Source: Methanothrix harundinacea 6Ac (GTDB taxonomy: Archaea > Halobacteriota > Methanosarcinia > Methanotrichales > Methanotrichaceae). From it: 64,000 bases of DNA. Made by a program: the position numbers and the translations under genes. The notes beneath the pieces were generated by a model. It searched no databases. It saw only the letters and a list, made by a program, of their open reading frames with translations, and had not been told where the DNA came from. Shown in pieces: positions 1,949-47,323 of the stretch; positions within the stretch are counted from its first letter, which is position 1, and the number at the start of each line of letters is the position of its first letter. The DNA is taken from positions 496,001 through 560,000 of the forward strand of contig NC_017527.1 in NCBI RefSeq assembly GCF_000235565.1, written 5' to 3'.

Positions 1949-3253
1949 GTGTCTGACAAAATAGACCTCTATAGTGACCGTGGCGTTCTTTTAAAGAGTG
2001 ACGTTGACCTGAGCGCCGTCAGCCCACTCAAGAACGCGGCGATGAAGAAGCTGATCAACCTGACCAAGCGGACCGTAGCGGTCAACCTGGCGGGAATCGA
2101 GAACGCCCTGAAGACCGGAAAGGTCGGCGGGCAGGGGAGGCAGATCAAGGGACGCGAGCTCAAGTACGACGTCGTCGCCAACGCCAACGCCCTCGCCGCC
2201 GAGATCAAGAAGCTCCTCCAGGTCGAAGCCGGAGACGACACCAACGTCCAGGTCCTGGGTGGAGGAAAGCAGCTCCTCGTCCAGATCCCGACTGCCAGGG
2301 TCGACGCCGCCTCCGAGTTCGTCGTCGGGATGACCGCAACGGCAGCCGCCACCTGTGAGGCGCTCGTCACTCAGTTCAAGGCCGGAATGTTTGAAGCCCC
2401 CATGGTCCACGCCGCAGTCTGGGGCCAGTACCCGCAGACCGTCCCCATGGCCGGCGGAAACATCGCCTCTGTTCTCAACATCCCCCAGAACGATGAAGGT
2501 CTCGGCTTCGCTCTTCGAAACATCATGGCCAACCACATCGCGGCCATCACCAAGAGGAACGCCATGAACGCTGCAGCCCTCTCTTCCATCTACGAGCAGA
2601 TCGGAAACTTCGAGATGGGCAACGCCATAGGCATCTTCGAGAGGTACCAGATGCTGGGCCTCGCCTACCAGGGCCTCAACGCCAACAACATGGTCTACGA
2701 CCTGGTCAAGTCCAACGGCAAGACCGGAACCATCGGGACCGTCGTCCACAGCGTCGTGGAGAGGGCCGTCGAGGATAAGGTCATCAAGGCCGGCGAGAAG
2801 CTCCCCTCCGGGTTCGTCATGTACGAGGCCGTCGATGTCCCCATGTGGAACGCCTACTGTGCAGCAGGCACCCTCGCAGCCACCATGGTCAACTGCGGCG
2901 CTCTCCGAGGCGCTCAGGCCGTCTCCTCAACCCTGCTCTACTTCAACGACGTCATCGAGAAAGAGACCGCCCTGCCCGGCTGTGACTGGGGCAAGGTCAT
3001 GGGAACCGCCGTCGGGTTCTCCTTCTTCAGCCACTCCATCTACGGCGGCGGCGGACCTGGCGTCTTCAACGGCAACCACGTCGTGACGAGGCACTCCCGA
3101 GGATTCGCCATCCCCTGCGTGTCCGCAGCGGTTGCTCTTGACGCCGGAACTCAGATGTTCACTCCGGAGATGACCTCCGGTCTGGTGGGAGCCGTCTACG
3201 GAGAGATCAAGGAGTTCCGCGAGCCTATCGTAGCAGTTGCGGAGGCTGTATAG
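1949..3253 (+). CDS. mcrB: Methyl-coenzyme M reductase, beta subunit
   Basis: McrB (434 residues) is the beta subunit of the alpha2-beta2-gamma2 enzyme that reduces methyl-CoM with CoB to methane and the CoM-S-S-CoB heterodisulfide, using nickel cofactor F430. The N terminus [15 protein letters not shown] and the Gly-rich segment [20 protein letters not shown] are typical of the family, and the length is normal. The GTG start is fixed by an AAAGGAGGA ribosome binding site eight bases upstream. It is first in an operon with mcrD, mcrG and mcrA, all on the same strand with gaps of 15-25 bases. Confidence 0.98.
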
Positions 3254-3268
3254 ATAGGTTGAGTATGC

Positions 3269-3763
3269 ATGGTCACTAAATCAGACACGGAACCGGTCCA
3301 GATAGAGATCTTCCCTCAAAGATTTCTAAAGCCCGATACGGCCCAGCGCCTCCTGGAGGAGATCTACAGCAGTGGAGGCATCCTGCGGATCATGATCCAA
3401 GGTCCCAACCTCCCCAAGTCGGTGCCCTACGGCCCCGGCAAGGGGATCCCCATCGAGGAGCACTTGAACATGCTCCTGGAGCTGGGGGATTCGGCCCTGG
3501 AGCTGAGGGTGAAGGTGGGACGGATCTGGCTGGAGCTGGATAGCGAGGAGAGGATTGAAGGGGTCAAAGCAGCATGCGAGCGAGTGCTGCCCTGCACCTT
3601 CAGCATCAAGAGAAAGCAACTATTTCACACCAAGCCCACCGTATCGGACTACGCGAAGTACGGGAGCGAGGTGGAGGATAAGAGGATCCTTGGACTGGTC
3701 GATCCGAAGGCCAAGCGAGAACGCGACCTGGCCATTTTGTCTGATACAGGCGGTGACACATAA
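3269..3763 (+). CDS. mcrD: Methyl-coenzyme M reductase operon protein D
   Basis: McrD (164 residues) is encoded in most mcr operons but is not part of the purified reductase; it is thought to assist MCR assembly or binding of F430. The region IEIFPQRFLKPDTAQRLL followed by a Gly-Pro-rich loop (VPYGPGKGIP) matches the family. It starts 15 bases after mcrB and ends 24 bases before mcrG. In many methanogens mcrC follows mcrD; here mcrG follows directly. Confidence 0.95.
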   Translation: MVTKSDTEPVQIEIFPQRFLKPDTAQRLLEEIYSSGGILRIMIQGPNLPKSVPYGPGKGIPIEEHLNMLLELGDSALELRVKVGRIWLELDSEERIEGVKAACERVLPCTFSIKRKQLFHTKPTVSDYAKYGSEVEDKRILGLVDPKAKRERDLAILSDTGGDT

Positions 3764-3787
3764 AATTTTCACAAGGAGGTTAAGGAT

Positions 3788-4561
3788 ATGGCATACAAAC
3801 CCCAATATTATCCCGGCACCACGTCTGTCGGCAAGAACAGACGCAAGCACATGTCTAGCGATCTGGAGAAGCTGAGAGACATCTCCGACGCCGACGTTGT
3901 AACCATCATGGGCCACAGGGCCCCCGGTGCAGACTACCCCAGCACCCACCCGCCCCTGGCAGAGATGGGAGAGCCCGACTGTCCCATAAGGCAGCTCGTC
4001 ACGCCCACCCCCGGCGCCGCCGCTGGAGACAGGATCAGGTACTCCCAGTTTGCTGACTCCATGTACAACGCCCCCGCCATCCCCTACTTCAGGAGCTACT
4101 GGGCGGCCATCAACTGCAGAGGCTCTGACCCCGGCACCCTCTCCGGCCGACAGATCGTCGAGGCTAGAGAGAGAGACATTGAGCAGTACACCAAGATCAT
4201 GATGGACACCGAGATGTGCGACCCCGCTCTCGCCACCATGAGGGGCTGCACCGTCCACGGCCACTCCCTGAGGCTCGACGAAGATGGAATGATGTTCGAC
4301 ATGCTCGCCAGGACTGAGCTCGGTTCCGACGGAAACGTCTACTACGTCAAGGACCAGGTCGGCATCCCCCTGGACAGAAAGGTCAACGCCGGAAAGCCGA
4401 TGAGCGAGGCCGAGGCGAAGAAGAGGACCACCATCTTCAGGTGCGACAACGTCTCCTTCGGTGGACCCTGCACCGCAGACAAGAGGACCTTCGACGAGGG
4501 GCTGGTCACTCTGCACCACATGTGGGAGCGGAGAAGCAAGTGGGGATTCAGGCCAGAGTAA
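3788..4561 (+). CDS. mcrG: Methyl-coenzyme M reductase, gamma subunit
   Basis: McrG (257 residues) is the gamma subunit of MCR. The N terminus MAYKPQYYPGTTSVGKNRR, the segment IMGHRAPGADYPSTHPPL and the C-terminal WERRSKWGFRPE are family hallmarks, and the length is typical. A ribosome binding site (AAGGAGG) is visible at 3772-3778. The gene lies between mcrD and mcrA, with a 16-base gap to mcrA. Confidence 0.98.
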   Translation: MAYKPQYYPGTTSVGKNRRKHMSSDLEKLRDISDADVVTIMGHRAPGADYPSTHPPLAEMGEPDCPIRQLVTPTPGAAAGDRIRYSQFADSMYNAPAIPYFRSYWAAINCRGSDPGTLSGRQIVEARERDIEQYTKIMMDTEMCDPALATMRGCTVHGHSLRLDEDGMMFDMLARTELGSDGNVYYVKDQVGIPLDRKVNAGKPMSEAEAKKRTTIFRCDNVSFGGPCTADKRTFDEGLVTLHHMWERRSKWGFRPE

Positions 4562-4577
4562 ATGGTGGTGATTAAAG

Positions 4578-6257
4578 ATGGGAAAGATTCACACTAAAAA
4601 GCTGTTCGTAAAGGCTTTGAACAAGAAGTTCGGAAGGGACTTCGACCTCAGCGGAACTAAGACCGTCTACGAGAGGCTTGGTCCCGAGCAGAACGCCCGT
4701 AAGAGAGAGTTCATGGAGGCCTCCAAGAAGCTGGAGGGCAAGCGTGGCATCTCCATGTACAACCCCTACCTCCACGCCGGCGGCGTACCGCTGGGCCAGA
4801 GGCAGCTCGTCCCCTACAAGCTCTCCACCACGGAGTACATCGTAGAGGGTGACGACCTCCACTTCGTCAACAACCCCGCCATGCAGCAGATGTGGGACGA
4901 CATCCGGAGGACGATCGTCGTCGGTCTGGACATGGCCCACGAGGTGCTGGAGAAGCGTCTGGGCAAAGAGGTCACCCCCGAGACGATCAACAACTACCTG
5001 GAGATCCTCAACCACGCCATGCCCGGCGCCGCCGTGGTTCAGGAGCACATGGTCGAGACCCACCCCGCCCTCGTCGACGACTGTAACGTCCGGATGTTCA
5101 CCGGCGACGACGACCTGGCGGACGAGATCGACGACCAGTACCTGATCGACGTCAACAAGCTCTTCCCCGCCGAGCAGGCCGAGGAGATCAAGGCAGCCAT
5201 GGGCAAGACCTCCTGGCAGGCCATCCACATCCCGACGATCGTATCCAGGACCTGCGACGGCGGTACCACCTCCAGGTGGAGCGCCATGCAGCTCTCCATG
5301 ACCTTCATCGACGCCTACAACATGTGCGCCGGTGAGGCCGCTGTGGCCGACCTGGCCTTCGCCGCGAAGCACGCCGCCGTCATCCAGATGGCTGACATGC
5401 TCCCCGCGAGGAGGGCCCGAGGCCCCAACGAGCCCGGTGGACTATCTTTCGGCTTCCTCGCCGACATGGTCCAGACCTCCAGGGTCAAGCCCTTCGACCC
5501 GCCCCAGGTCTCCCTGAACGTCGTCGCCGCCGGCGCGATGCTCTACGACCAGATCTGGCTCGGCAGCTACATGTCCGGTGGTGTCGGCTTCACCCAGTAC
5601 GCCACGGCCGCCTACACCAACGACGTCCTGGACGACTTCTCCTACTACGCATGCGACTACGGCGTGGACAAGTTCGGTGACTGGGGCAAGGCTCCCGCCA
5701 CCCTGGAGACCTCCAAGGACATCGCCACCGAGACGACCCTCTACGCCATGGAGCAGTACGAGTCCTTCCCGACCCTGCTGGAGGACCACTTCGGCGGTTC
5801 CCAGAGGTCCGCGGTCATGGCCGCCGCCAGCGCCATCGGCTCTGCCTGCCTGACCGGAAACAGCCAGTCCGGCCTCGCCGCCTGGTACCTCAGCCACCTC
5901 ATCCACAAGGACGGCTGGGGCAGGATGGGCTTCTTCGGATACGACCTGCAGGACCAGTGCGGTCCGACCAACGTCTTCAGCTACCAGGGCGACGAGGGGA
6001 GCCCCCTCGAGCTGAGAGGCGCGAACTATCCGAACTACGCCATGAACGTCGGCCACCAGGGCGAGTATGCAGGCATCTCCAGCGCCGCTCACGCGGGCCG
6101 CTTCGACGCCTATGCGTGCAACCCCCTGATCAAGGTCTGCTTCGCAAACCCGGCCCTGATCTTCACCTGGGACGACATCCGCAAGGGATACGGCATGGGT
6201 GGTGCGAGGGAGTTCCGCGCGGCCGGCGAGAGATCCCTGGTCATGCCCGCAGTGTAG
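4578..6257 (+). CDS. mcrA: Methyl-coenzyme M reductase, alpha subunit
   Basis: McrA (559 residues) carries the F430 active site of methane formation. Conserved segments include [15 protein letters not shown] (residues 333-347) and [11 protein letters not shown] (452-462). By motif comparison with the M. marburgensis enzyme, the post-translationally modified positions correspond to His265 (N-methyl), Arg279 (5-methyl), Gln409 (2-methyl), Gly454 (thioglycine), Asp459 (didehydro) and Cys461 (S-methyl). All these residues are present, but whether each is modified cannot be read from DNA. Enzymes matching the Arg and Gln modifications are encoded at 8261-10809. Confidence 0.99.
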
Positions 6258-6480: not shown

Positions 6481-6999
6481 CTATCGATCCGAGGCTTTAT
6501 CCCTGGTCAGATCCCGGATCAGCCCCTCCCCCCAGGGGTGAAGATCGACCTTGAGGTCTCTCAGGACCTTGGGGGCCTTCAGGGATGGCTCGTCGCTCAG
6601 CCTCAGGGCCACCAGATTTTTCTTCATCAGGAGGCTCTCTCGAACCTCCCAGTCGACCCATTCGCAGTCCTGGAAGGTCTTTCCCACCAGGACGAAGACG
6701 ATCGATGACGCCTCAATCCTTTTCGTGATGCAGCGTCGGACGTAGACGGCGTTCTCGTTCTTGAAATGGACCTTCAATGCGAAGTCTATGAAGTCGAGGC
6801 GGGGGTCGACCCCCTTGGCGAAGCTGCAGAACTCCCGGACCCGGTCCAGGTCTTCCACCCGGAAGATGAGGAAGGCCCTCCTCCGGGGGAGGAGGGCCTG
6901 AGGCTCGAATACCTCCCCCCGCGCCATCTCCTCCAGCCTCTCCAAAGCCGAGGGTTTCGGCTCTGAAGGGCGGATCTCCGGATCGGCGATCTCAATCAT
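6481..6999 (-). CDS. TIR-like domain protein (ThsB/DUF1863-like)
   Basis: This 172-residue protein has the layout of the MTH538/ThsB TIR-like family (DUF1863). It has a first beta strand RAFLIFRVEDLD (about 41-52), a middle segment FKNENAVYVRRCITKRIEAS, a strand SIVFVLVGKTFQDCEW and the family signature CEWVDWEVRESLL. Such domains in Thoeris ThsB make NAD-derived signals, and other TIRs cleave NAD; catalysis here is unproven. Residues 1-38 form a polar leader with no clear domain. It starts inside the last codons of the QueC-like gene (8-base overlap) with a GGAGGGAAGGG site upstream, so the two are translationally coupled. No membrane segment is visible. Confidence 0.72.
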   Translation of the reverse strand: MIEIADPEIRPSEPKPSALERLEEMARGEVFEPQALLPRRRAFLIFRVEDLDRVREFCSFAKGVDPRLDFIDFALKVHFKNENAVYVRRCITKRIEASSIVFVLVGKTFQDCEWVDWEVRESLLMKKNLVALRLSDEPSLKAPKVLRDLKVDLHPWGEGLIRDLTRDKASDR

Positions 7000-7609
7000 C
7001 CCTTCCCTCCCTCCCCAGGGGGTCGACGACGGCCTTTCGGGCGGTGCAGCTCCTGCAGATTCCGTTTCTTCCCGGGTGGCAGCAGAAGGTCTCCTCGATG
7101 GGGAGGCCGTACCATCTGGCGGTGTTGAGGACGTCCTCCTTCGTGAAGTTTATGAGGGGGGTGAGGATGGTGATGAAGTCGCCGAAGGCCGAGTTTATGG
7201 CGAAGTTGGCGTTGACGAGGAACTCCTCAGTCTGGTCGGGGAACCGGCGGCTCTCATCCGAGAGGAGGGCGAGGGCTACGATCTTAATCCCCCGCTGGTA
7301 GGCGTACGAGGCGGCGGCCATCAGAGCCATCAGGTTTCTCCCCGGGAGGAAGGCGTTGATGTAGCTCGCCTTGCACTCCCCCTGGACGTCGGACTCTATC
7401 GATCTGCAGTAGCCGCTCAGGTCTATCCTCTCGGGCGGCGGAAGGTCGCACCTCTCAAAGACGCTCCTGCAGGCCTCCCACTCCTCATCGCCGGATATCT
7501 GGCCGAAGTCGATGAAGATGGGGTGCTGCTCCTGCCTCTCGTTGTTGAGGATCTTGCACATCACCAGGGAGTCTATGTCACCGGAGACTATGGGGACTAC
7601 GGCCATCAT
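6992..7609 (-). CDS. Divergent QueC-family (PP-loop) protein coupled to TIR-like gene
   Basis: This is a 205-residue relative of 7-cyano-7-deazaguanine synthase QueC. It shows the N-terminal PP-loop MMAVVPIVSGDIDS, where QueC normally has SGGxDS, the helix GRNLMALMAAASYA and a C-terminal zinc-like cluster FCCHPGRNGICRSCTARK. Only three of the four canonical C-x8-C-x2-C-x2-C positions are Cys; the last is Arg. The start at 7609 is chosen because TAAGGAGCT lies just upstream and a TATA element sits at 7674-7686; the longer frame to 7690 would begin upstream of that TATA. A canonical QueC exists at 45916-46593, so this copy probably does another job. QueC-like proteins occur in the Qat and type IV CBASS defence systems. 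Confidence 0.75.
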   Translation of the reverse strand: MMAVVPIVSGDIDSLVMCKILNNERQEQHPIFIDFGQISGDEEWEACRSVFERCDLPPPERIDLSGYCRSIESDVQGECKASYINAFLPGRNLMALMAAASYAYQRGIKIVALALLSDESRRFPDQTEEFLVNANFAINSAFGDFITILTPLINFTKEDVLNTARWYGLPIEETFCCHPGRNGICRSCTARKAVVDPLGREGRDD

Positions 7610-7673
7610 CGATAGCTCCTTATCTGAGGGACGGCGCGGTTCTGCGCAGTCGGACTTTGTACCTTGAAGCATC

Positions 7674-7686
7674 AACTTATATATCC
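7674..7686 (-). promoter_or_regulatory. TATA box of the QueC-like/TIR-like unit
   Basis: Minus-strand AGGATATATAAGT is a good archaeal TATA box. It predicts transcription starting near 7650 and a leader of about 40 nt containing the AAGGAG ribosome binding site, which supports the start at 7609. Confidence 0.6.
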
Positions 7687-8260: not shown

Positions 8261-9556
8261 TCAGACGATCCGGTCCTTATATTTCTCCAGAAGGCCCATC
8301 ACCCTCCTCACATCCCTCCCCTGAGTTCGCACCTCCTGAAGGAAGGCGGAGTAGGTGGCGTCGTCGACTATTCGCGGCACCGGCTTGCAGCTCATCCCGG
8401 TGAGCATCAGGTTGAAGCACCGGGCCTCCGCCTCCGAGATCCTCAGGGCCCGATATTCTCCGGCATGCTCCCGGTAGAGGGGGTTATCCTCCCGGGGCAG
8501 GTCCAGGGCGATCTTGGCGAGGGGAGTTCCTGGTATCGGCTCTGCGACGCTCGCGAAGACGTCCTCCAGCATCGCCTCCTCCATGAAGTCTAGGGTCGCC
8601 TGGTAGTCCTCCTCCATCTCGCCGGGGTAGCCGACGATGAAGCTTCCGCCGACCTTGACCCCGGACTGGTGGGCGAGCTCCACCGCCTCCAGGCTCTTCT
8701 CGGGGGTCGTCCCCTTCTTCATCGCCCTGAGGATCCCGGGGCTCCCCGACTCGATCCCGAAGAAGACCCAGCCGACGGTGTACCTCCTCACCGCCTCCAG
8801 GATCTCCTCGTCGACGAAGTCGACCCTCATATCCGGGACTGAGAGGTTCTTTGGACCCAGGATCTCAGCCAGGCCCTTTAAGAGGGTGATGAAAGCCTCC
8901 TTGTTCACCTCCTTCCCGTAGCCGAATAGTGATCCCGTACCGCCGCTGACCGCCACCCTGGTGACCCCCCTCCTCTTCATCTCTCTGACCTCGGCGAGGA
9001 TGTTCTCGAGGGACCGGGACCGGATTGACCGGCCGAAGAACCGGGGGACCTGGCAGAAGGTGCAGCCTCCCAGGCATCCCCGGTGGGTCTCGATGTAGAC
9101 GTTGGCTCCCCGGACGCTCTGGCTCCTCAGGTCGTCGGGGATGAGGGGCATGACGTGGTCGAGGTCGGAGACGGGGATGGGATCGGTCTTGACCACCACG
9201 CCGTCCCGGAGGAAGGCTAGGCCGGAGATCTCTTCGGAGGGCCCCCCTTCGACTAGGTCTGCGACGACCTCCTCCCCCTCCCCCACGACCACAGCATCTA
9301 CCTCCAGCTCCCCGAGGACGATCTCGGGGACGAGGCCGACGGGGCCTCCGACGTATATCCTCGGAGCCCGGCTCGCCAACTCCCGGATCTCGGGGTCGAG
9401 GAGCTGGGAGGTGGAGAAGAGGCTGAGGAGGGTCAGATCCCCCTCGGAGGAGAGGTCCCTGGTGATCGAGACGGCGTGGCCCCGGTCCCTGAGGATGCCG
9501 CCGAGGACTAGGGAGCCGTAGGTGTAGATCTTAGGGGATACGATCGTCGTCTTCAT
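8261..9556 (-). CDS. B12-binding radical SAM enzyme, probable McrA glutamine C-methyltransferase
   Basis: The protein (431 residues from the chosen start) has an N-terminal cobalamin-binding-like domain (MKTTIVSPKIYTYGSLVLGG; YVGGPVG; VVVGEGEE). A radical SAM core follows, with the cluster motif RGCLGGCTFCQVP and downstream VAVSGGTGS and FFGIESGSPGILRAM. This layout matches the MJ0865-type family shown to C-methylate the active-site Gln of McrA, equivalent to Gln409 here. The start at 9556 is preferred because GGAGATTAAG precedes it; an in-frame ATG lies 12 bases upstream at 9568. It follows mmp10 by about 30 bases and is probably co-transcribed. The location close to mcr supports the assignment. 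Confidence 0.82.
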   Translation of the reverse strand: MKTTIVSPKIYTYGSLVLGGILRDRGHAVSITRDLSSEGDLTLLSLFSTSQLLDPEIRELASRAPRIYVGGPVGLVPEIVLGELEVDAVVVGEGEEVVADLVEGGPSEEISGLAFLRDGVVVKTDPIPVSDLDHVMPLIPDDLRSQSVRGANVYIETHRGCLGGCTFCQVPRFFGRSIRSRSLENILAEVREMKRRGVTRVAVSGGTGSLFGYGKEVNKEAFITLLKGLAEILGPKNLSVPDMRVDFVDEEILEAVRRYTVGWVFFGIESGSPGILRAMKKGTTPEKSLEAVELAHQSGVKVGGSFIVGYPGEMEEDYQATLDFMEEAMLEDVFASVAEPIPGTPLAKIALDLPREDNPLYREHAGEYRALRISEAEARCFNLMLTGMSCKPVPRIVDDATYSAFLQEVRTQGRDVRRVMGLLEKYKDRIV

Positions 9557-9585
9557 CTTAATCTCCATACCGTTATTGATCCGTC

Positions 9586-10809
9586 TCAGACCCCCAGGCC
9601 GTTGATCTCACTGATCAGCTCGGTGAAGGCCTCCACCTCCACCTCGATCACCTCCTCGGGGGTCATGCTGATGGACATCTCCCCGTCGACGGTCAGCCGG
9701 TCGGGGCCGCGCCGGACGAGCCTTCTGACCCCGTCCCTCGATAGGACCCGTTTGATCTCGGGGTCGAAGGCCATCGTCCTCCCCGGGAGGATCACCGTCT
9801 CCTTCACCGACGAGAGGTCGAGGGCGAGGAGGTCCTGGATGGTGATGAGGCATCCGATATCCTTTTTTACGGCGATGACGTTGACGCCGTCGCCCAGCTC
9901 CGCGAAAATCGCTTTGAGGAGGGGGGCGGCGACGGAGCTGGTGATGAGGGTCGCCCCCTTCTGGACTTGGGGGAGCCTTCTTATCAGGTCCTTGTGGTGC
10001 GCCAGGGCGAAGGGGGACTTCGTCACGGGGTCCCAGAGGGGGGTTCCCGCCACCCTGAAGCTGTATCTATCGTTCGTCTCGGTCACGATATCCCGGAACT
10101 CCTCGACGGTGTGGGGGACGACCCCGGGGATGATCGGCTCGTTTCCGAGGATCAGCCCCTGCTCCCGAGAGTTTGCAAACCTCATCAGGATCAGGTTCTT
10201 GACCCCCATCTCCTCCAGGTCCCGGCAGGTCCGGTCGAGCTCGGGGCCGTCGTTCACCCCCGGTATGAGGACGGAGGCGGCGTAGACGTCGCAGCCTTCA
10301 GCGAACCGCCGGAGGTTCGCCAGGGCGGCCTCGGGGTGGCGGTCGTTCATATGCTCTCTCCGGAGGGCCGGGTCCGTCGAGAAGACGGTGAAGGAGACCT
10401 CCTTCACCCCCGCCTCGATCAGGTCCTCGGCCTCGTCTCCCCTCGTGAAGCCCTTGCCGCTGGTGTAGCCGAGGTGGATGGGGACCCCGCCCTGCCCCAC
10501 CATCCGGGCCAGCTCCAGGAGGTGGGGATAGCAGCTGAGGTCGCCTCCGCCGCTGATCGTCACCTTATCGGGCCTCCTCCCGAAGGCGGCTCCGGCCACC
10601 TCCATCGCCACCGTCGCCATCGGCTTGAAGCCTGGGTACGCCTCGGCGATCGCCCGGGAGCAGTAGTCGCACCCCTTCTGAAAAGGTAGGCACCTCTTGC
10701 ACCCGAAGGGCTTCAGCTCGTTTGTCTTTACGCCCTTGAAGTAGCAGTAGCTGCAAAATCCCTTGCAGTCTATCCCCGGCCTTCCGCCGACGTCCGCCAG
10801 AATCTCCAT
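9586..10809 (-). CDS. mmp10: McrA-arginine methyltransferase Mmp10 (methanogenesis marker 10)
   Basis: Mmp10 is the cobalamin-dependent radical SAM enzyme that C5-methylates the active-site Arg of McrA (Arg279 here). The N terminus DVGGRPGIDCKGFCSYCYFKG followed by CKRCLPFQKGCDYC is diagnostic, and the SAM-binding GGGDL motif follows. The length (407 residues) is normal. The ATG at 10809 is chosen because GGAGAG lies seven bases upstream; an in-frame TTG at 10815 is the alternative. It is transcribed away from the radical SAM/SPASM gene at 10995 and is followed by the Gln methyltransferase. Confidence 0.93.
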   Translation of the reverse strand: MEILADVGGRPGIDCKGFCSYCYFKGVKTNELKPFGCKRCLPFQKGCDYCSRAIAEAYPGFKPMATVAMEVAGAAFGRRPDKVTISGGGDLSCYPHLLELARMVGQGGVPIHLGYTSGKGFTRGDEAEDLIEAGVKEVSFTVFSTDPALRREHMNDRHPEAALANLRRFAEGCDVYAASVLIPGVNDGPELDRTCRDLEEMGVKNLILMRFANSREQGLILGNEPIIPGVVPHTVEEFRDIVTETNDRYSFRVAGTPLWDPVTKSPFALAHHKDLIRRLPQVQKGATLITSSVAAPLLKAIFAELGDGVNVIAVKKDIGCLITIQDLLALDLSSVKETVILPGRTMAFDPEIKRVLSRDGVRRLVRRGPDRLTVDGEMSISMTPEEVIEVEVEAFTELISEINGLGV

Positions 10810-10994
10810 CCGCAAACTCTCCAGACCAGGATCGGCCCGGAGGGGTAAAGCCTTTGCGGGATGGGCGGGGGCGGGGATGATCCGATCGAAACCCTCCCGA
10901 AGCGGGAGGAAGGTGGGCTGGACTCGACCCCTCCTTTCGACGGAATCGCCGCGTAATCGGCGAGAAAACCGTAAGCCGGAAAACTATTAGTACC

Positions 10995-12179
10995 TTGAAG
11001 AAGACCAAAAAGATCGTGGCTCATAAAAGGCCGTTTCACGTCATGATCATCCCCACCCTGGGCTGTCCATCCAGCTGCAGCTACTGCTGGTCCTCCGATG
11101 AAAGGTCCCCAATAATGACGATCGAGACTGTGAAGGAGATGGTCCACTGGCTCCGGGAGTTTCGGGACGACCCCGTCACCTTCACCTTCCACGGCGGCGA
11201 GCCCCTCCTCGCCGGAGCCGACTTCTACCGCGAGGCTCTGGCCCTGATCACCGAGGGGCTCCGGCCCCGGAAGATCGCCTTCGCCCTCCAGACGAACCTC
11301 TGGAAGATGACCCCGGAGATGGCCTCCGTCCTGGCGGAGTACCAGATCCCCATCGGCTCAAGCATCGACGGCCCGAAGGATCTGAACGACCTCCAGAGGT
11401 CGGCGGGGTACTTCGATAAGACGATGGCCGGCTACAGGGTCGCAAAGGAGCACGGCCTCTCCGTCCAGTTCATCTGCACCTTCACCTCCACCTCGATAGA
11501 CAAAAAGGAGGAGATATTCAACTTCTTCTTGGAGAACGGCCTCACCATGAAGCTCCACCCTGCTCTTCCCTCCCTGAAGAGCGACGATCCGGATAAGTGG
11601 GCCCTCCCTCCCGAGAAGTACGGCGAGCTCCTCGTCTACCTCCTCGACAAGTACCTGGAGAATATGGATAAGATCGAGGTCCGTAACATCAACGACCTCT
11701 GTCGATGCGTCTTCACCGGCCGGGGGACGGTCTGCACCTACGTCGACTGCATGGACGACACCTTCGCCGTCGGCCCCGACGGGAGCATATACCCCTGCTA
11801 CCGGTTCGTGGGGATGCCGGAGTGGGTGATGGGGAACATCCGCGACCGTCCCTCCCAGGCCGACCTGGCGGGGTCCGGGGCTGGAAGGAGGATGCAGGAG
11901 TTCAAGAGGCGGGTCGACGTGGCGTGCAAGGGCTGCCGCCACCTCCGGTACTGCCGGGGCGGATGCCCCTACAACGCCATAGCCCCCTCCGGCGGCGAGC
12001 TTTTGGGCGTCGATCCCCACTGCGTCGCCTACAAGAGAATCTTCGACGAGATCGCCGACCGGTTCAATAAAGAGATCTTCGGCTCCTTCCCGATGGGGCC
12101 GACCTGCCTCCCCACCGAGCCCCCTCGGGGCGGAAAGCCGGGGATCACGGCCCTGATCCAGAAGATCGTCTCGAGCTAG
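10995..12179 (+). CDS. Radical SAM/SPASM peptide-modifying enzyme
   Basis: This 394-residue protein has a radical SAM core (LGCPSSCSYCWSS, residues 23-35; TFHGGEPLL) and a C-terminal SPASM-type region with several Cys clusters (GTVCTYVDC, GSIYPCYRF, ACKGCRHLRYCRGGCPYN, DPHC). It resembles the anSME-like, putatively peptide-modifying enzymes of methanogens (Mhun_1560 group). Such enzymes act on a protein or peptide side chain. No precursor peptide gene was found next to it, so a protein target should be considered. Its position opposite mmp10 makes McrA a possible substrate, by inference only. The start is a TTG; a later ATG at 11043 cannot be excluded. Confidence 0.8.
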   Translation: MKKTKKIVAHKRPFHVMIIPTLGCPSSCSYCWSSDERSPIMTIETVKEMVHWLREFRDDPVTFTFHGGEPLLAGADFYREALALITEGLRPRKIAFALQTNLWKMTPEMASVLAEYQIPIGSSIDGPKDLNDLQRSAGYFDKTMAGYRVAKEHGLSVQFICTFTSTSIDKKEEIFNFFLENGLTMKLHPALPSLKSDDPDKWALPPEKYGELLVYLLDKYLENMDKIEVRNINDLCRCVFTGRGTVCTYVDCMDDTFAVGPDGSIYPCYRFVGMPEWVMGNIRDRPSQADLAGSGAGRRMQEFKRRVDVACKGCRHLRYCRGGCPYNAIAPSGGELLGVDPHCVAYKRIFDEIADRFNKEIFGSFPMGPTCLPTEPPRGGKPGITALIQKIVSS

Positions 12180-39995: not shown

Positions 39996-40247
39996 TTAAG
40001 GAGTGGCGTTCTCCAGGTCTCGCAGCTCGGCTTCGAGGGGAAACGCCTTGTAGCGTTCGAGGGTCAGCAGAAACTCGAATCGCGGCATACCGGCAAGCTC
40101 CGCGGCTCGTCCTGAGGAGAGCCGACCTAGCTCATAGAGCTTGACTGAGGCCAAAATCCGCAGCTCGCGCCCGAAGGCCTTCTCGTCGGTCTTCTCGGAT
40201 AAGAGCACCTTTTCGGGCACGTCGATCGTAATTCTTCGAGCGGCCAT
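39996..40247 (-). CDS. UPF0175 family antitoxin-like protein (orphan)
   Basis: This 83-residue protein matches UPF0175: an N-terminal strand ITIDVPEKVLL, a helix ELRILASVKLYELGRLSSGRAAELAGMPRFEFLLTLERY (an HTH typical of these antitoxins) and an acidic tail. Such proteins usually pair with a PIN-domain (DUF3368) toxin downstream. Here the downstream 140 bases contain no toxin, so it appears to be an orphan. An AT-rich promoter lies upstream (40250-40300). Confidence 0.78.
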   Translation of the reverse strand: MAARRITIDVPEKVLLSEKTDEKAFGRELRILASVKLYELGRLSSGRAAELAGMPRFEFLLTLERYKAFPLEAELRDLENATP

Positions 40248-40535
40248 ATTTCACCATAATACGATTATTTTCATGGCATAACTTATTTTTCATACGATGA
40301 TTCTTATCGGATTTCAGCCGGGCGAGGCTCGTGGGGGCGGAGCCGTCCAGCCGGAGGGAGCGCAAGGTTCGCACCGCCTGGGCGAAGGCGGACGGCATCG
40401 AGCGGCTCGTGGTCGTGCAGGATGTATCTCACGTCTCCGGTTGCCTGCAGTCAAAGACGATGAAATGATAATGGATTACTTTGGCCCACTTTCTAGATAT
40501 TTATATATTAAATATAGAATCGTCTGCCTTAGGCA

Positions 40536-41639
40536 TCATTTTCGTCTTTTTAAATAACTCAATAGTGCTTCTTGCAAAAACTTCTCAGCTTCTCTTAGGG
40601 CGTCCCAATCATCTGAAAGTTGATGTACATTTTTTCCACGCAGTTTTGAAGCTTTACTCACCTTCGAGTATGCACTTTCTTCACTGATATTCATTATACG
40701 AGCCATATTTTCGGCCATGATCCTGTTCCGACCCTTAAGGAATACTCGACCTGGATCGGAAATCGCATTTTTGAGCTTATCTAGACGATCAGGATCATTT
40801 TTGAGACTTTCAACATTCTTAGCTGATTCGAGAATTTGATTAATCTCATCCTTTGTGAGAAGAGGCTCAGACTTACTGCGAAACACGTGTTCAGTAGCTG
40901 CCCAAAGCATCGAAAGTCGGCTTGGCATGCAGTTTTCTAGGTAAGATTGGTTTAGGCCTCGGGCGGCTAGCCTTTCTTTATCAAACGAAAGAATTGCCTC
41001 GATATTATTAATTTCTTCTGGCGTTACTGGACGAAGCATTTCTTCCCGCATTCCAGCAAAGCAATATAATCCAATTCGAGGTCTAAATGTGCAGCTAAAT
41101 TGTTTAATATAAAAACCAACATTTTGTATTATTGCAAGGCAATCCAATAAAAGTAGTAACTTTTCTCGAACCAATTCCCCATATTCCCTATCAGTTTGGT
41201 CCAGCTTAATGAAAACGTTAAATGCTCCAACAGCGTCTCCCAACTTAAACTCCCAACCCCAAAGACCATCCAAGCTCTCAACTAAACGATCTAAGTGGGA
41301 AACCCCTCCATAAGTGGATCTACCACCTAGAGCGAGACATTGTGCACGAATAGCCATACCAATTGGCTCATTTTGATATTCGATCCGCTTGTTTATTCGA
41401 TTGAGTATAGCCTGATCTGAAGTAAGTACTTCTACTTGGTGCCCTGTGGGTATATGGCTCAAGACTACTACGTTTTTATTTCTGTTTGATGGATGAAGTG
41501 CTTCTTGTAAAGATAGTTCAGTCTTAAAGAATGAAATGAATCCATGGATTTCCTGTGGGGTATGATTCAGTATAGGATAGGACGTCACAACCCGATAACC
41601 GTCCTCAAAAAGTTTCTCTAATTCTTCCAGGCTAACCAA
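40536..41639 (-). CDS. AT-rich foreign gene with a C-terminal HEPN-like motif
   Basis: I do not recognise the whole 367-residue protein. Its coding sequence is clearly more AT-rich than all neighbours, with many AAT, ATT and TTA codons, which points to transfer. Residues about 1-230 form a mixed alpha/beta region (YRVVTSYPILNHTPQEIHGF; CTFRPRIGLYCFAGMREEM). The C-terminal 130 residues are helical and end with LRGKNVHQLSDDWDALREAE, a R-x4-H motif (Arg334, His339) as in HEPN ribonucleases of the ApeA type. That suggests a defence or toxin RNase. The start is TTG at 41639, with GAGGG upstream. It sits 30 bases downstream of apgM. Confidence 0.6.
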   Translation of the reverse strand: MVSLEELEKLFEDGYRVVTSYPILNHTPQEIHGFISFFKTELSLQEALHPSNRNKNVVVLSHIPTGHQVEVLTSDQAILNRINKRIEYQNEPIGMAIRAQCLALGGRSTYGGVSHLDRLVESLDGLWGWEFKLGDAVGAFNVFIKLDQTDREYGELVREKLLLLLDCLAIIQNVGFYIKQFSCTFRPRIGLYCFAGMREEMLRPVTPEEINNIEAILSFDKERLAARGLNQSYLENCMPSRLSMLWAATEHVFRSKSEPLLTKDEINQILESAKNVESLKNDPDRLDKLKNAISDPGRVFLKGRNRIMAENMARIMNISEESAYSKVSKASKLRGKNVHQLSDDWDALREAEKFLQEALLSYLKRRK

Positions 41640-41669
41640 GGTGCAACCCTCTTAAGAAGCTACAATCTA

Positions 41670-42887
41670 TTATGAGCTGCCAGCGGATCCTATTCCTGCC
41701 CTCTCCACCATCATCCCCATCAGCCGCCACCCGTCGATCGTGCCGCACCCGCCCCGGGCCCCCTCCCGCTCGGAAAACGCCTCCATCCCGTCGGCCTCGA
41801 TCCCCGAGCCGATCATGGCGAAGGGGACGGGCTCGGCGGTGTGGGTCCGAAGGGCGATGGGGGTGGGGTGGTCGGGCAGGACGGCGACGCGCCACTGGTG
41901 CCCCGATCGTTCGAGGCCGGCGAGGACGAGGCCGACGACCCGCTCGTCGAAGCGCTGGATCGCCTCGATCTTCTCTTCGAGCTTGCCATCGTGGCTCATC
42001 TCGTCGGGGGCCTCGACATGGAGGTAGACGAAGTCCACCCGGTCGAGGGCCTCGAGGCAGGCGGCGACCTTCCCCTCGTAGTTGGTGTCGAGGACGCCGG
42101 TGGCTCCGGGGACGTTGATTACCTCGAGGCCCGCGTAGACCCCCATCCCCTTGAGGAGGTCGACGGCGGAGATGACGGCGCCCTCTACGCCCCACAGCTC
42201 GCGGAACTTCGGCATGGAGGGGGCCTTCCCCTGCCCCCAGAGCCAGATCATGTTGGCGGTCCGCTTTCCCTCTCGCGCGCGGCGGAGGTTGACCGGGTGT
42301 TCAGCGAGGATCGGGACCGACGCCAGCATCATCTCGCGCAAGGCGGCTGCTCCCTCTCCCTTCGGCAGGTATCCATCGATCGGCTGGCCGGAGATGTCGT
42401 GGGGCGGGGTGCAGACCGCCTGGAGGCCTTCGTCGCCGCCCCGGACGAGGAGGTTTCGGTAGCTTACGCCAGGATAGAGCCTCGCTTTTGGATCGCTCTT
42501 CTGGAGGGCGGCGATCAGCTCGCGCCCCTCCTCCGAGGAGATGTGGCCCGCGCTGTAGTCGACCATGACCCCACGATCGAGGTCGACGTTGACCAGGTTG
42601 CACCGGAAGGCGACATCTTCTGGACCGAGAGAGACGCCCATCGCCGCCGCTTCCAGGGGGGCTCGGCCGGTGTAGTACCTCCTCGGGTCGTAGCCCATCA
42701 CCGAGAGGTTTGCGACGTCGCTTCCCGGCGGCATCCGCGGCGGGACGTTTCTAGCAAGGCCGCCTCGCCCTTCTCGGGCTATCCTGTCCATATTGGGGGT
42801 CTCTGCCGCCTCCAGAGGCGTCTTTCCCTCCAGCGCCTCGATGGGATGGTCCGCCATCCCGTCTCCCAGCAATATAACAAGCTTCAT
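41670..42887 (-). CDS. apgM: Cofactor-independent phosphoglycerate mutase, archaeal type
   Basis: ApgM (405 residues) interconverts 3- and 2-phosphoglycerate in gluconeogenesis/glycolysis using two metal ions. The N terminus KLVILLGDGMADHPIEALEG, the catalytic-Ser segment PPGSDVANLSVMGYDPRRYYTGRAPLEA, and the metal-binding HVEAPDEMSHDG and AVLPDHPTP segments are diagnostic of the archaeal alkaline-phosphatase-like family. The length is normal. It is a single gene upstream of the AT-rich insertion. Confidence 0.95.
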   Translation of the reverse strand: MKLVILLGDGMADHPIEALEGKTPLEAAETPNMDRIAREGRGGLARNVPPRMPPGSDVANLSVMGYDPRRYYTGRAPLEAAAMGVSLGPEDVAFRCNLVNVDLDRGVMVDYSAGHISSEEGRELIAALQKSDPKARLYPGVSYRNLLVRGGDEGLQAVCTPPHDISGQPIDGYLPKGEGAAALREMMLASVPILAEHPVNLRRAREGKRTANMIWLWGQGKAPSMPKFRELWGVEGAVISAVDLLKGMGVYAGLEVINVPGATGVLDTNYEGKVAACLEALDRVDFVYLHVEAPDEMSHDGKLEEKIEAIQRFDERVVGLVLAGLERSGHQWRVAVLPDHPTPIALRTHTAEPVPFAMIGSGIEADGMEAFSEREGARGGCGTIDGWRLMGMMVERAGIGSAGSS

Positions 42888-45389: not shown

Positions 45390-45572
45390 ATGGTGCCCAA
45401 GATATCGGTGGAGATACCCCAGCACATCATCGACGACGTAAACCGGCACGTCGGCGACGACGGGAAGTTCGTCACCTTCTCCGACGCCGTCCGGACGGCG
45501 CTGAGGAAGATGCTCGACCAGCTCGACGAGATAGACCGCCGCCAGGGGCGGCTGAAGGATGGAGAAGAATGA
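45390..45572 (+). CDS. Ribbon-helix-helix (CopG-like) regulator heading queDCE
   Basis: This 60-residue protein has an N-terminal beta strand (KISVEIPQHIIDDVNRHV) and two helices (TFSDAVRTALRKMLDQL) of a MetJ/Arc-type ribbon-helix-helix DNA-binding protein. It has no ligand domain. It overlaps queD by four bases and sits directly behind an inverted repeat at its own promoter, so it probably represses itself and the preQ0 genes. The signal it responds to is unknown. Confidence 0.83.
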   Translation: MVPKISVEIPQHIIDDVNRHVGDDGKFVTFSDAVRTALRKMLDQLDEIDRRQGRLKDGEE

Positions 45573-45919
45573 GGATGGGCCTCTCCCTGGAGTTCGACGC
45601 CGCCCACCGCCTTCCGGGATACGACGGCAAATGCGCCCGTGTCCACGGCCACACCTACGAGGTGGAGGTGGTAGTCGAGGGGCAGGTCGACGAAAAGACA
45701 GGCTTTTTGATGGACTTTTACGATCTGAAGGAGGCCCTCAGATCGGTCCTGGAGGAGCTGGATCACCGCGACCTCAATGAGATCCTCGATAACCCCACCG
45801 CCGAGTGTATCGCAGAGCAGATCAGGGCCGGCCTGGAGGAGCAGCTCCTTGGCTCCAACGCCGCCCTCGTCTCGGTGAAGCTCTGGGAGGGGAAGGGCAA
45901 GTGGGTGATGACCGGATGA
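45569..45919 (+). CDS. queD: 6-carboxytetrahydropterin synthase QueD
   Basis: QueD (116 residues) converts dihydroneopterin triphosphate to 6-carboxy-tetrahydropterin, the first dedicated step toward preQ0 and archaeosine. Zinc and catalytic motifs are present: FDAAHRLPGYDGKCARVHGHTYEVEV (His20, Cys31, His35 and His37 by count), DFYDLK, LDHRDLNE and PTAECIA. The length is typical. It overlaps both the RHH gene and queC by four bases. Confidence 0.95.
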   Translation: MRMGLSLEFDAAHRLPGYDGKCARVHGHTYEVEVVVEGQVDEKTGFLMDFYDLKEALRSVLEELDHRDLNEILDNPTAECIAEQIRAGLEEQLLGSNAALVSVKLWEGKGKWVMTG

Positions 45920-46593
45920 CGCCGAAGGCGGTCTGCCTCTGCTCCGGGGGGCTCGACTCGACCGTCGCGGCGACGAAGGCGCTGAACGACGGCTTTGAGA
46001 TCTCCATCTTCCACGTCCTCTACGGCCAGAAGGCGGAGGAGAGGGAGAAGAGGGCGATCGCGGAGGTGGCGGGGGCCCTGGGGGCGGTGGAGGTACGGTT
46101 CGCGAAGACGGACCTCTTCCGGAAGATGACACCCCTGACGACGGCCGGGGCCCCCATCCCCATGGGGAGGGAGGTGGATATCCGGGGCCCCAGGGCCACC
46201 CCCTCCACCTGGGTATACTGCCGGAACCTCGTCTTCGGGTCCATGGCGGCGGCGTATGCGGAGTCGGTGGGGGCTGAGAGGGTCTACGTCGGCTTCAACG
46301 CCGAGGAGGGGAGGTCGTACCCCGACAACAGGCCGGAGTTCGTCGATAGGTTCAACCTCCTCCTGGAGAAGGCCGTTGCCTCCTTCAGCATCCCCCCGAG
46401 GGTCGAGGCGCCCCTCGTCCACCTCCAGAAGCCCGAGATCGTAAAGCTCGGGTCGGATCTGGGGGCGCCGATGGCCCTGACCTGGTCCTGCTACCTGGAT
46501 GGCGCCCTCCACTGCGGGGAGTGCGAGGCGTGTCAGCACCGGATGTTCGGCTTTCTGGAGGCGGGCGTCCCTGACCCCACCGAGTACCTCTGA
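45916..46593 (+). CDS. queC: 7-cyano-7-deazaguanine synthase QueC (canonical)
   Basis: QueC (225 residues) makes preQ0 from carboxy-deazaguanine, ATP and ammonia. It has the canonical PP-loop CSGGLDS, the substrate segment STWVYCRNLVFGSMAAAYAE and the complete zinc site SCYLDGALHCGECEACQHR (C-x8-C-x2-C-x2-C). The start at 45916 overlaps the queD stop (ATGA). Compare the divergent paralogue at 6992-7609, which has altered PP-loop and zinc positions. Confidence 0.96.
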   Translation: MTPKAVCLCSGGLDSTVAATKALNDGFEISIFHVLYGQKAEEREKRAIAEVAGALGAVEVRFAKTDLFRKMTPLTTAGAPIPMGREVDIRGPRATPSTWVYCRNLVFGSMAAAYAESVGAERVYVGFNAEEGRSYPDNRPEFVDRFNLLLEKAVASFSIPPRVEAPLVHLQKPEIVKLGSDLGAPMALTWSCYLDGALHCGECEACQHRMFGFLEAGVPDPTEYL

Positions 46594-46603
46594 CTCTGGA
46601 GTC

Positions 46604-47323
46604 TTGGGGGAGATCTTCTCCTCCTTCCAGGGGGAGGGGCCGCTCTTAGGGAGGAGGCAGGTCTTCGTCCGGACGGCGGGATGCAACCTCGCTTGCGCCT
46701 ACTGCGACTCGGCGAAGTTCCGCCGCGAGGTGACGTTTTGTGATGTTATTGCCCCCGGCCTCCGCCGACGGGCTGAAAATCCCGTATCCTTGGCGTGGAC
46801 GATGGAGGAGGTCCGGGCTCTCTGGGGCAGAGGGACTCATAGCGTCTCGATAACCGGCGGCGAGCCCCTCTGCCAGCCCGAGTTCGTCGAGGCGCTGGCG
46901 AGGGCTTGCTCCGCCGAGGGGATGCCTGTCTACCTGGAGACGAACGGCTTCTCTCACCGCCGGTTCTCGAAGATGATCCCTTGGATCGATATTGCGGCCG
47001 TCGACATAAAGCTTCCAAGCGCGTTCTCCCGGGGGGGATCGGAGGAGCTGGTCGAGAACGAGCTCGCCTCCATCGAGGCCGCCTCCCGCCGGGGGGTCTT
47101 CACCATCGCCAAGGTGGTGGTCCTCGCCTCGACCCCTAGGGCGGAGATAGAGGGCCTCGTTCCCAGGCTGGCGGGGCTGGACGCCGTGGTCGTCCTCCAG
47201 CCCGCCTCGGGGGACGGGAGGCCGTCTCCGGAGAAGCTGACAGAGCTATTCGAGGCGGCAGCGGAGGTCCTCTCCGGGGTGGTCGTCATACCCCAGGCCC
47301 ACAAGATGATGGGGATCCTCTGA
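46604..47323 (+). CDS. queE: 7-carboxy-7-deazaguanine synthase QueE
   Basis: QueE is the radical SAM enzyme that contracts 6-carboxytetrahydropterin to carboxy-deazaguanine. The N terminus GEIFSSFQGEGPLLGRRQ, cluster motif AGCNLACAYCDS (C-x3-C-x2-C) and SITGGEPLCQPEF are diagnostic. I choose the TTG at 46604 (239 residues), ten bases after the queC stop with GGAG in front. The open frame extends upstream to 46499, but that part overlaps queC and looks unlike the family. It completes queDCE. Confidence 0.92.
   Translation: MGEIFSSFQGEGPLLGRRQVFVRTAGCNLACAYCDSAKFRREVTFCDVIAPGLRRRAENPVSLAWTMEEVRALWGRGTHSVSITGGEPLCQPEFVEALARACSAEGMPVYLETNGFSHRRFSKMIPWIDIAAVDIKLPSAFSRGGSEELVENELASIEAASRRGVFTIAKVVVLASTPRAEIEGLVPRLAGLDAVVVLQPASGDGRPSPEKLTELFEAAAEVLSGVVVIPQAHKMMGIL

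What the first reader, a model, noticed from the sequence alone, without database searches (positions are those of the whole stretch)
6481..7609. Two-gene unit of a QueC-like enzyme and a TIR-like protein: candidate undescribed defence or signalling system
Seen: a divergent QueC-family gene and a ThsB/DUF1863-like TIR gene overlap by 8 bases on one transcript with its own TATA box and ribosome binding site. Known: QueC-like proteins occur in Qat and type IV CBASS defence, where QueC chemistry serves immunity rather than tRNA, and TIR domains make or destroy NAD-derived signals. Inferred: the QueC-like protein may modify or prime the TIR protein (for example by a deazaguanine-type conjugation), or both may act on nucleotides during infection. 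No CD-NTase, TGT-like or SLOG partner is adjacent, so a two-component QueC+TIR system would be new.
Basis: partly seen in the sequence, partly recalled or inferred. Interest (0 to 1): 0.85.

Follow-up and report, generated by a model that had tools for sequence, protein, structure and literature searches.

The report
QueC–TIR gene pair, reduced in Methanothrix
Two adjacent archaeal genes, one related to a nucleobase-making enzyme (QueC) and one to an immune-signalling TIR enzyme, are a slimmed-down member of an apparently undescribed QueC–TIR gene module found in archaea and bacteria; most members carry a glycine start like the proteins that QueC-type enzymes chemically tag in known antiviral systems, but this copy has lost that tag site.

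Summary
On the minus strand a QueC-family gene (7606–6992) overlaps a ThsB-type TIR gene (6999–6481) by 8 bp. The pair is conserved in synteny in 5 of 9 genomes of the genus (Methanothrix); the other four have neither. Both proteins are under purifying selection.

Related QueC–TIR pairs occur in two other methanogen lineages, on 13 Rhizobiaceae plasmids and on one IMG/VR contig. The QueC tree (97/94) and TIR tree (95/90) each make the pairs one clade. The complete bacterial operon is PfkB, TIR–TGT, OGG glycosylase, QueC, TIR: the type IV CBASS accessory set with a TIR in place of the CD-NTase. In every relative the TIR begins MGG, the N-terminal-glycine feature of proteins tagged by Cap9 and probably QatC.

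The Methanothrix pair is a derived, reduced form: no TGT in the genome, no linked OGG, no Gly2, P-loop SGG changed to SGD, fourth zinc Cys changed to Arg. A deazaguanine tag on TIR Gly2 is therefore likely in relatives but not possible in this copy. Here QueC most likely serves as a dedicated, altered control subunit of the TIR. No paper describing QueC–TIR was found.

The parts
6992..7606 (-). QueC-like PP-loop protein (204 aa; 205 aa if ATG 7609 is used). P-loop S8-G9-D10-I11-D12-S13 (canonical SGGxDS); F34-G-Q36; P88-G-R90-N91; F122-P-D124-Q; zinc-site remnant C175-C176-H177...C184xxC187xxR190
   Evidence: Pfam QueC 5.1e-26; Foldseek best hits QueC 3bl5 and Cap9 9nto; alignments
6481..6999 (-). 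ThsB-type TIR protein (172 aa). Disordered N-tail 1-17 starting MIEI, TIR core from about 40, catalytic-type glutamate E118 in WVDWEV
   Evidence: Pfam ThsB_TIR 1.8e-10; phmmer 8fz9 TIR 6.8e-9; AlphaFold2 and Foldseek
6992..6999 (-). 8-bp overlap of the two genes; purine-rich GGGAGGGAAGGG just before the TIR ATG is a plausible ribosome-binding site
7616..7621 (-). AAGGAG ribosome-binding site of the QueC-like gene, conserved in five species
7676..7685 (-). TATA-box-like element (GATATATAAG; GATAAATA in relatives) preceded by a conserved GGTG-type purine-rich stretch
   Evidence: alignment

Best explanation
The pair is a derived two-gene member of a QueC-TIR module, the TIR counterpart of type IV CBASS. 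In the complete relatives a QueC-family ligase most likely activates 7-carboxy-7-deazaguanine (CDG) with ATP and attaches it to the N-terminal glycine of a ThsB-type TIR, with TGT-like and OGG-like proteins reading or processing the tag and the TIR turning NAD+ into a signal or depleting it on infection (inferred from Cap9 and QatC). In Methanothrix the accessory genes, the acceptor glycine and the P-loop glycine are gone, while both proteins stay under purifying selection. Here the QueC-like protein most likely acts as a dedicated, catalytically altered partner that binds the TIR's N-terminal tail and holds or releases TIR NADase activity. Shown: pairing, co-inheritance, constraint, loss of hallmarks. 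Inferred: binding, NADase activity, immune role.
For: Pair syntenic in 5 species, both absent in the other 4 of the genus. Related pairs in G475, G664, Rhizobiaceae plasmids and IMG/VR L057. TIR-linked QueCs are one clade (97/94), QueC-linked TIRs one clade (95/90), same branching order. The rhizobial operon has TGT, OGG and QueC as in type IV CBASS, with the TIR start MGGG; G475 and G664 TIRs start MGGGGGGG and MGGSGG right after QueC. MGG start in 11/11 TIRs linked to QueC, TGT or QatC versus 0/28 others (one of the 28 has MGN). CDG supply: queD-queC-queE in the same window. Residues that grip the deazaguanine and ATP in Cap9/QatC (aromatic plus Asp; S, D, S; RN) are retained. TIR tail predicted disordered like QatB's. 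dN/dS.
Against: No experiment shows defence, binding or NADase activity for any member. The pair sits beside mcrA and the MCR-modifying genes, not in a defence island. QatC also has Arg at the fourth zinc position (PMC13329287), so that change need not mean loss of catalysis; only the SGD substitution argues directly against ATP use. The MGG statistic is not corrected for relatedness of the TIRs.
Confidence: 0.55

Rival explanations
1. The Methanothrix QueC-like protein is still an active ligase that modifies the TIR, on the Met1 amine or another residue, with deazaguanine or another acid; the SGD loop and Cys/Arg changes are a change of specificity.
For: S8, D12, S13, R90, N91, F122, D124, K156 and three Cys retained; dN/dS about 0.1; first 8 residues of the TIR tail more conserved (0.62) than the following linker (0.32); QatC works with Arg at the fourth Cys position (PMC13329287).
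Against: No Gly2 in any of the five species and no alternative start that gives one; G10D puts an acid in the pyrophosphate loop; in Qat the G2D mutation of QatB, and in CBASS the same kind of change, block function (PMC13279940).
Confidence: 0.22
2. The pair helps make or regulate methyl-coenzyme M reductase, because it sits between mcrA and the MCR glutamine and arginine methyltransferases.
For: Adjacent to mcrA on one side and near TIGR04014 (MCR Gln C-methyltransferase) and Mmp10 on the other in window and relatives.
Against: In G001 and G007 mcrA is followed directly by Mmp10 with no pair; the related pairs in G475, G664 and Rhizobiaceae are not next to mcr genes, and those bacteria have no MCR.
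Confidence: 0.08
3. The QueC-like gene is a second preQ0 synthase for archaeosine, and the TIR gene is an unrelated neighbour.
For: QueC fold and Pfam membership.
Against: A queD-queC-queE cluster already exists at 45569-47323; the protein scores far below the TIGR00364 cutoff; it is outside the canonical clade; QueC and TIR share presence, absence and tree.
Confidence: 0.04
4. The pair is a decaying remnant of a complete module with no present function.
For: Loss of TGT, OGG linkage, Gly tail and P-loop glycine.
Against: Intact frames in five species, dN/dS 0.03-0.12 for QueC and 0.21-0.36 for TIR, conserved promoter and RBS.
Confidence: 0.04

Closest known systems
Type IV CBASS (Cap9 QueC, Cap10 TGT, OGG-like glycosylase, CD-NTase)
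   Same: QueC-family enzyme with a signalling enzyme as dedicated partner; the complete bacterial relatives also have TGT- and OGG-family genes and an N-terminal-glycine partner.
   Different: Partner is a TIR, not a CD-NTase; QueC belongs to a separate clade from Cap9; the window's copy lacks TGT, OGG and the glycine.
Qat (QatB-QatC)
   Same: No TGT: a minimal QueC-family enzyme plus a partner with a disordered N-tail (PMC13279940).
   Different: QatC is about 400 aa with extensions and Thr-Thr in place of the Tyr/Asp site; this QueC-like protein is 204 aa and keeps aromatic/Asp; no QatA or QatD.
Thoeris (ThsB TIR)
   Same: TIR protein of the ThsB family (PF08937).
   Different: No ThsA or other Thoeris effector gene in the neighbouring ORFs; QueC-family partner instead.
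[quoted passage not shown]
   Same: Fold, most active-site residues.
   Different: SGD P-loop, FPDQ for YPDC, no fourth zinc Cys, fails the TIGR00364 cutoff; the genome has a separate canonical-type QueC in a queD-queC-queE cluster.

Membership tests
PF06508 QueC superfamily | score above the Pfam gathering threshold, QueC fold | tested here: met
   91.9 vs 22 bits; Foldseek 3bl5/9nto/2pg3 at top
Canonical QueC | TIGR00364 equivalog cutoff | tested here: not met
   85.9 vs 150.3 bits
Canonical QueC | SGGxDS, YPDC and C(x)8CxxCxxC motifs | tested here: not met
   SGDIDS, FPDQ, CxxC then Arg in all five species
Type IV CBASS | CD-NTase gene next to cap9 | tested here: not met
   no CD-NTase in flanking ORFs; the partner is a TIR
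Type IV CBASS | TGT-family Cap10 | tested here: not met
   no PDLC00913 match in G000 or the four related genomes; present in complete relatives as a TIR-TGT fusion
Type IV CBASS | OGG-like glycosylase in the operon | tested here: not met
   only a distant, presumably housekeeping OGG in the genome; OGG is adjacent in Rhizobiaceae, L057, and as a fragment in G475
NDG / deazaguanylation substrate | N-terminal glycine on a disordered tail of the partner | tested here: not met
   tail disordered but starts MI/MM, no Gly2; met in the relatives
Qat | QatA, QatB and QatD genes; extended QatC | tested here: not met
   none adjacent; QueC-like protein is 204 aa without extensions
Thoeris | TIR of the ThsB family | tested here: met
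   PF08937 41.6 vs 21.2 bits
Thoeris | ThsA-type or other effector gene in the operon | tested here: not met
   flanks are mcrA and an LMWP phosphatase-like gene
TIR NADase | catalytic glutamate | tested here: met
   E118 in WVDWEV invariant in the TIRs aligned
TIR NADase / anti-viral system | NAD+ cleavage, virus protection | not testable with these tools
   needs experiment

The most novel reading that the evidence does not exclude
A third QueC-based immune system: QueC-family enzymes tag the N-terminal glycine of TIR proteins with 7-deazaguanine (TIR counterpart of type IV CBASS, in archaea and bacteria), and in Methanothrix the covalent step has been dropped so that QueC has become a non-covalent control subunit or sensor of the TIR.
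Probability: 0.35. Interest if true: 0.88.

Novelty: new variant of a known kind. Interest (0 to 1): 0.72.

Why it matters
QueC-family protein tagging was shown only recently for type IV CBASS and is inferred for Qat; [quoted passage not shown] A module that couples the same enzyme set to TIR proteins would link deazaguanine chemistry to NAD+-based immunity in both archaea and bacteria. The Methanothrix reduction is a natural experiment: it shows which parts can be lost together (acceptor glycine, P-loop glycine, TGT, OGG) while the QueC–TIR partnership itself is kept.

Tried and rejected
Reading it as a second canonical preQ0 synthase: rejected by score, motifs, tree and the separate queDCE cluster. 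Reading it as type IV CBASS or Qat: no CD-NTase, TGT or Qat genes. An alternative start giving the TIR a Gly2: none in any of the five species. Early TIR trees without the G475/G664 sequences did not resolve the TIR's placement; adding them did. Close-relative scans of IMG/VR with the window QueC and the rhizobial QueC found nothing. Search of 392 genomes of another class (that of G226) found no close relative (no positive control). Literature searches for QueC with TIR, PfkB or TGT gave no paper on this pairing; subscription-only papers and most preprints were not searchable, so a prior mention, for example in older comparative-genomics surveys of nucleotide-centred conflict systems, cannot be excluded.

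Full report
What is there. The window is a chromosomal stretch of a methanogen: mcrBDCGA lies at 1949–6257 (+), and its closest named relatives are records titled Methanothrix and Methanotrichaceae. Directly downstream, on the opposite strand, are the two genes of the finding: a QueC-family protein at 7606–6992 and a ThsB-type TIR protein at 6999–6481. The 8-bp overlap is real but private to this genome; in four related species the two genes are 4–19 bp apart. Pfam QueC is 5e-26, but the protein is far below the cutoff of the canonical QueC model. The TIR is closest to a Bacillus cereus TIR of known structure and to ThsB. A TATA-like element and an AAGGAG site upstream of queC are conserved in all five species.

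Conservation inside the genus. Of nine same-genus genomes, five have both genes and four have neither; the TIR occurs in no other genome of the 61 first searched. In all five the order is mcrA, TIR, queC, then an LMWP phosphatase-like gene. In two genomes without the pair, mcrA is followed directly by Mmp10. QueC evolves slowly (dN/dS 0.03–0.12) and TIR faster (0.21–0.36). The genome's only ThsB-type TIR is this one.

Relatives elsewhere. The best plasmid hits of both proteins were the same 13 Rhizobiaceae records, with the two genes adjacent. Their operon reads PfkB, TIR fused to TGT, OGG-HhH glycosylase, QueC, ThsB-type TIR, in some followed by a SLATT membrane effector and another TIR. The TGT part and the QueC match the PADLOC models that also match type IV CBASS proteins. 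An IMG/VR contig carries the same operon. Wider genome searches found two more archaeal cases: G475, same class (OGG fragment, QueC, TIR), and G664, another class (QueC, TIR, with a C-terminal OGG-like fragment read by eye). Both contigs end inside OGG, so whether TGT lies upstream is unknown. No close relative was found in 392 genomes of a third class.

One origin for the pair. A QueC tree puts all TIR-linked QueCs in one clade (97/94), apart from canonical QueC, Cap9 and the PfkB/deoxyribosyltransferase-linked QueCs; a TIR tree puts all QueC-linked TIRs in one clade (95/90). Both trees give the same order: Rhizobiaceae plus the IMG/VR contig, then G475, then G664 with Methanothrix, although the innermost forks are weakly supported. 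The TIR clade also holds L102, a TIR near a QatC-type gene. The Methanothrix stem is long in both trees (0.86 and 0.91 changes per column).

The N-terminal glycine. In type IV CBASS, Cap9 joins 7-deazaguanine to the N-terminal glycine of the CD-NTase, and QatB needs an N-terminal glycine on a disordered tail (PMC11996544, PMC13279940). All rhizobial TIRs start MGGG, the IMG/VR one MGGSS, G475 MGGGGGGG and G664 MGGSGG; in G475 and G664 the start lies just behind or over the QueC stop with a ribosome-binding site. The same start occurs in four archaeal TIRs that lie next to TGT-like genes (the TGT assignment rests on one weak PADLOC match) and in L102 with QatC. In the sample 11 of 11 such TIRs have MGG; of 28 others none does, and one has MGN (Fisher p = 7e-9 counting that one as glycine, not corrected for kinship; G664 was found afterwards). 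A same-genus relative, G001, has a type IV CBASS operon whose CD-NTase, read from the GTG at which the PADLOC model begins, starts MGGSGG.

The Methanothrix copy is reduced. Against these relatives it has lost the TGT (none in the genome), the linked OGG (only a distant one), the glycine tail (starts MIEI, MMEI, MIVI; no alternative start), the second P-loop glycine (SGD) and the fourth zinc cysteine (Arg), and gained a cysteine next to the first zinc cysteine. What it keeps: the S, D and S of the P-loop, the RN motif, the aromatic and Asp that hold the deazaguanine in Cap9 (Phe122, Asp124), and a disordered TIR tail. The first eight tail residues are more conserved than the linker after them (0.62 vs 0.32). 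QatC also has Arg at the fourth zinc position (PMC13329287), so that change alone does not show loss of catalysis.

How it most likely works. Family level (inferred): QueC activates CDG with ATP and joins it to Gly2 of the TIR; TGT- and OGG-like partners handle the tag; the TIR uses NAD+ upon infection. CDG should be available here, since queD, queC and queE lie at 45569–47323. Window level (inferred): with the donor site altered and the acceptor glycine gone, but the pair kept under selection, the QueC-like protein is best read as a dedicated control subunit of the TIR, possibly still binding ATP or a deazaguanine. An altered but still active ligase is the main rival. A role in MCR maturation is suggested only by position next to mcrA and MCR-modifying genes and is not shared by the related pairs.

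Novelty and limits. No held paper describes QueC with TIR. It is a new variant of the QueC-based defence kind rather than a new kind. Defence itself is inferred from partners and relatives. Nothing here shows virus protection, interaction or chemistry, and the neighbourhood in the window is not a defence island. That an OGG-like protein belongs to the type IV CBASS accessory set rests on my own knowledge plus the operons seen here.

Noticed in passing
L061 4953-8109 (G001, same genus): A type IV CBASS operon in a methanogen of the same genus: QueC (Cap9), TGT (Cap10), CD-NTase with probable MGGSGG start, and a gene with an HhH-glycosylase look (no Pfam hit).
   Followed up: partly
L060 5153-10458 (G343): OGG, QueC, TGT followed by a beta-propeller/SIR2 protein and a metallo-beta-lactamase-fold protein whose likely start reads MGGGSSIG: the same enzyme set with what looks like another tagged partner.
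   Followed up: partly
L082-L085 (G400, G086, G395, G389): Archaeal TIRs starting MGGG directly behind a TGT-like gene, no QueC adjacent; a caspase-family gene (L085) or a small, probably membrane, protein next to them.
   Followed up: partly
L102 1-3327 (IMGVR_UViG_3300025161_000270): TIR starting MGGGGGGG followed by a 262-aa protein of unknown family and a QatC-type protein (PDLC02214 1e-50).
   Followed up: partly
L030, L033 about 10104-11490: SLATT_3/SLATT_1 membrane protein and a second ThsB-type TIR follow the rhizobial QueC-TIR operon; possible effector pair.
   Followed up: no
window 8261-12179: MCR glutamine C-methyltransferase (TIGR04014), Mmp10 (TIGR03278) and a TIGR04083 peptide-modifying radical SAM enzyme close to mcrA: an MCR-modification neighbourhood.
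   Followed up: partly
window 45569-47323: queD-queC-queE cluster, the preQ0 pathway; this QueC reads VYCRN and YPDN rather than VPxRN and YPDC and falls just below the TIGR00364 cutoff.
   Followed up: no
L007, L008, L011, L015, L016: A well-supported archaeal QueC group with P-loop SSGLDS and TFPDN motif; may correspond to the archaeal QueC clusters of unknown role in PMC13329287.
   Followed up: no
window 40001-42000: G+C drops to 0.49 against about 0.62 around it.
   Followed up: no
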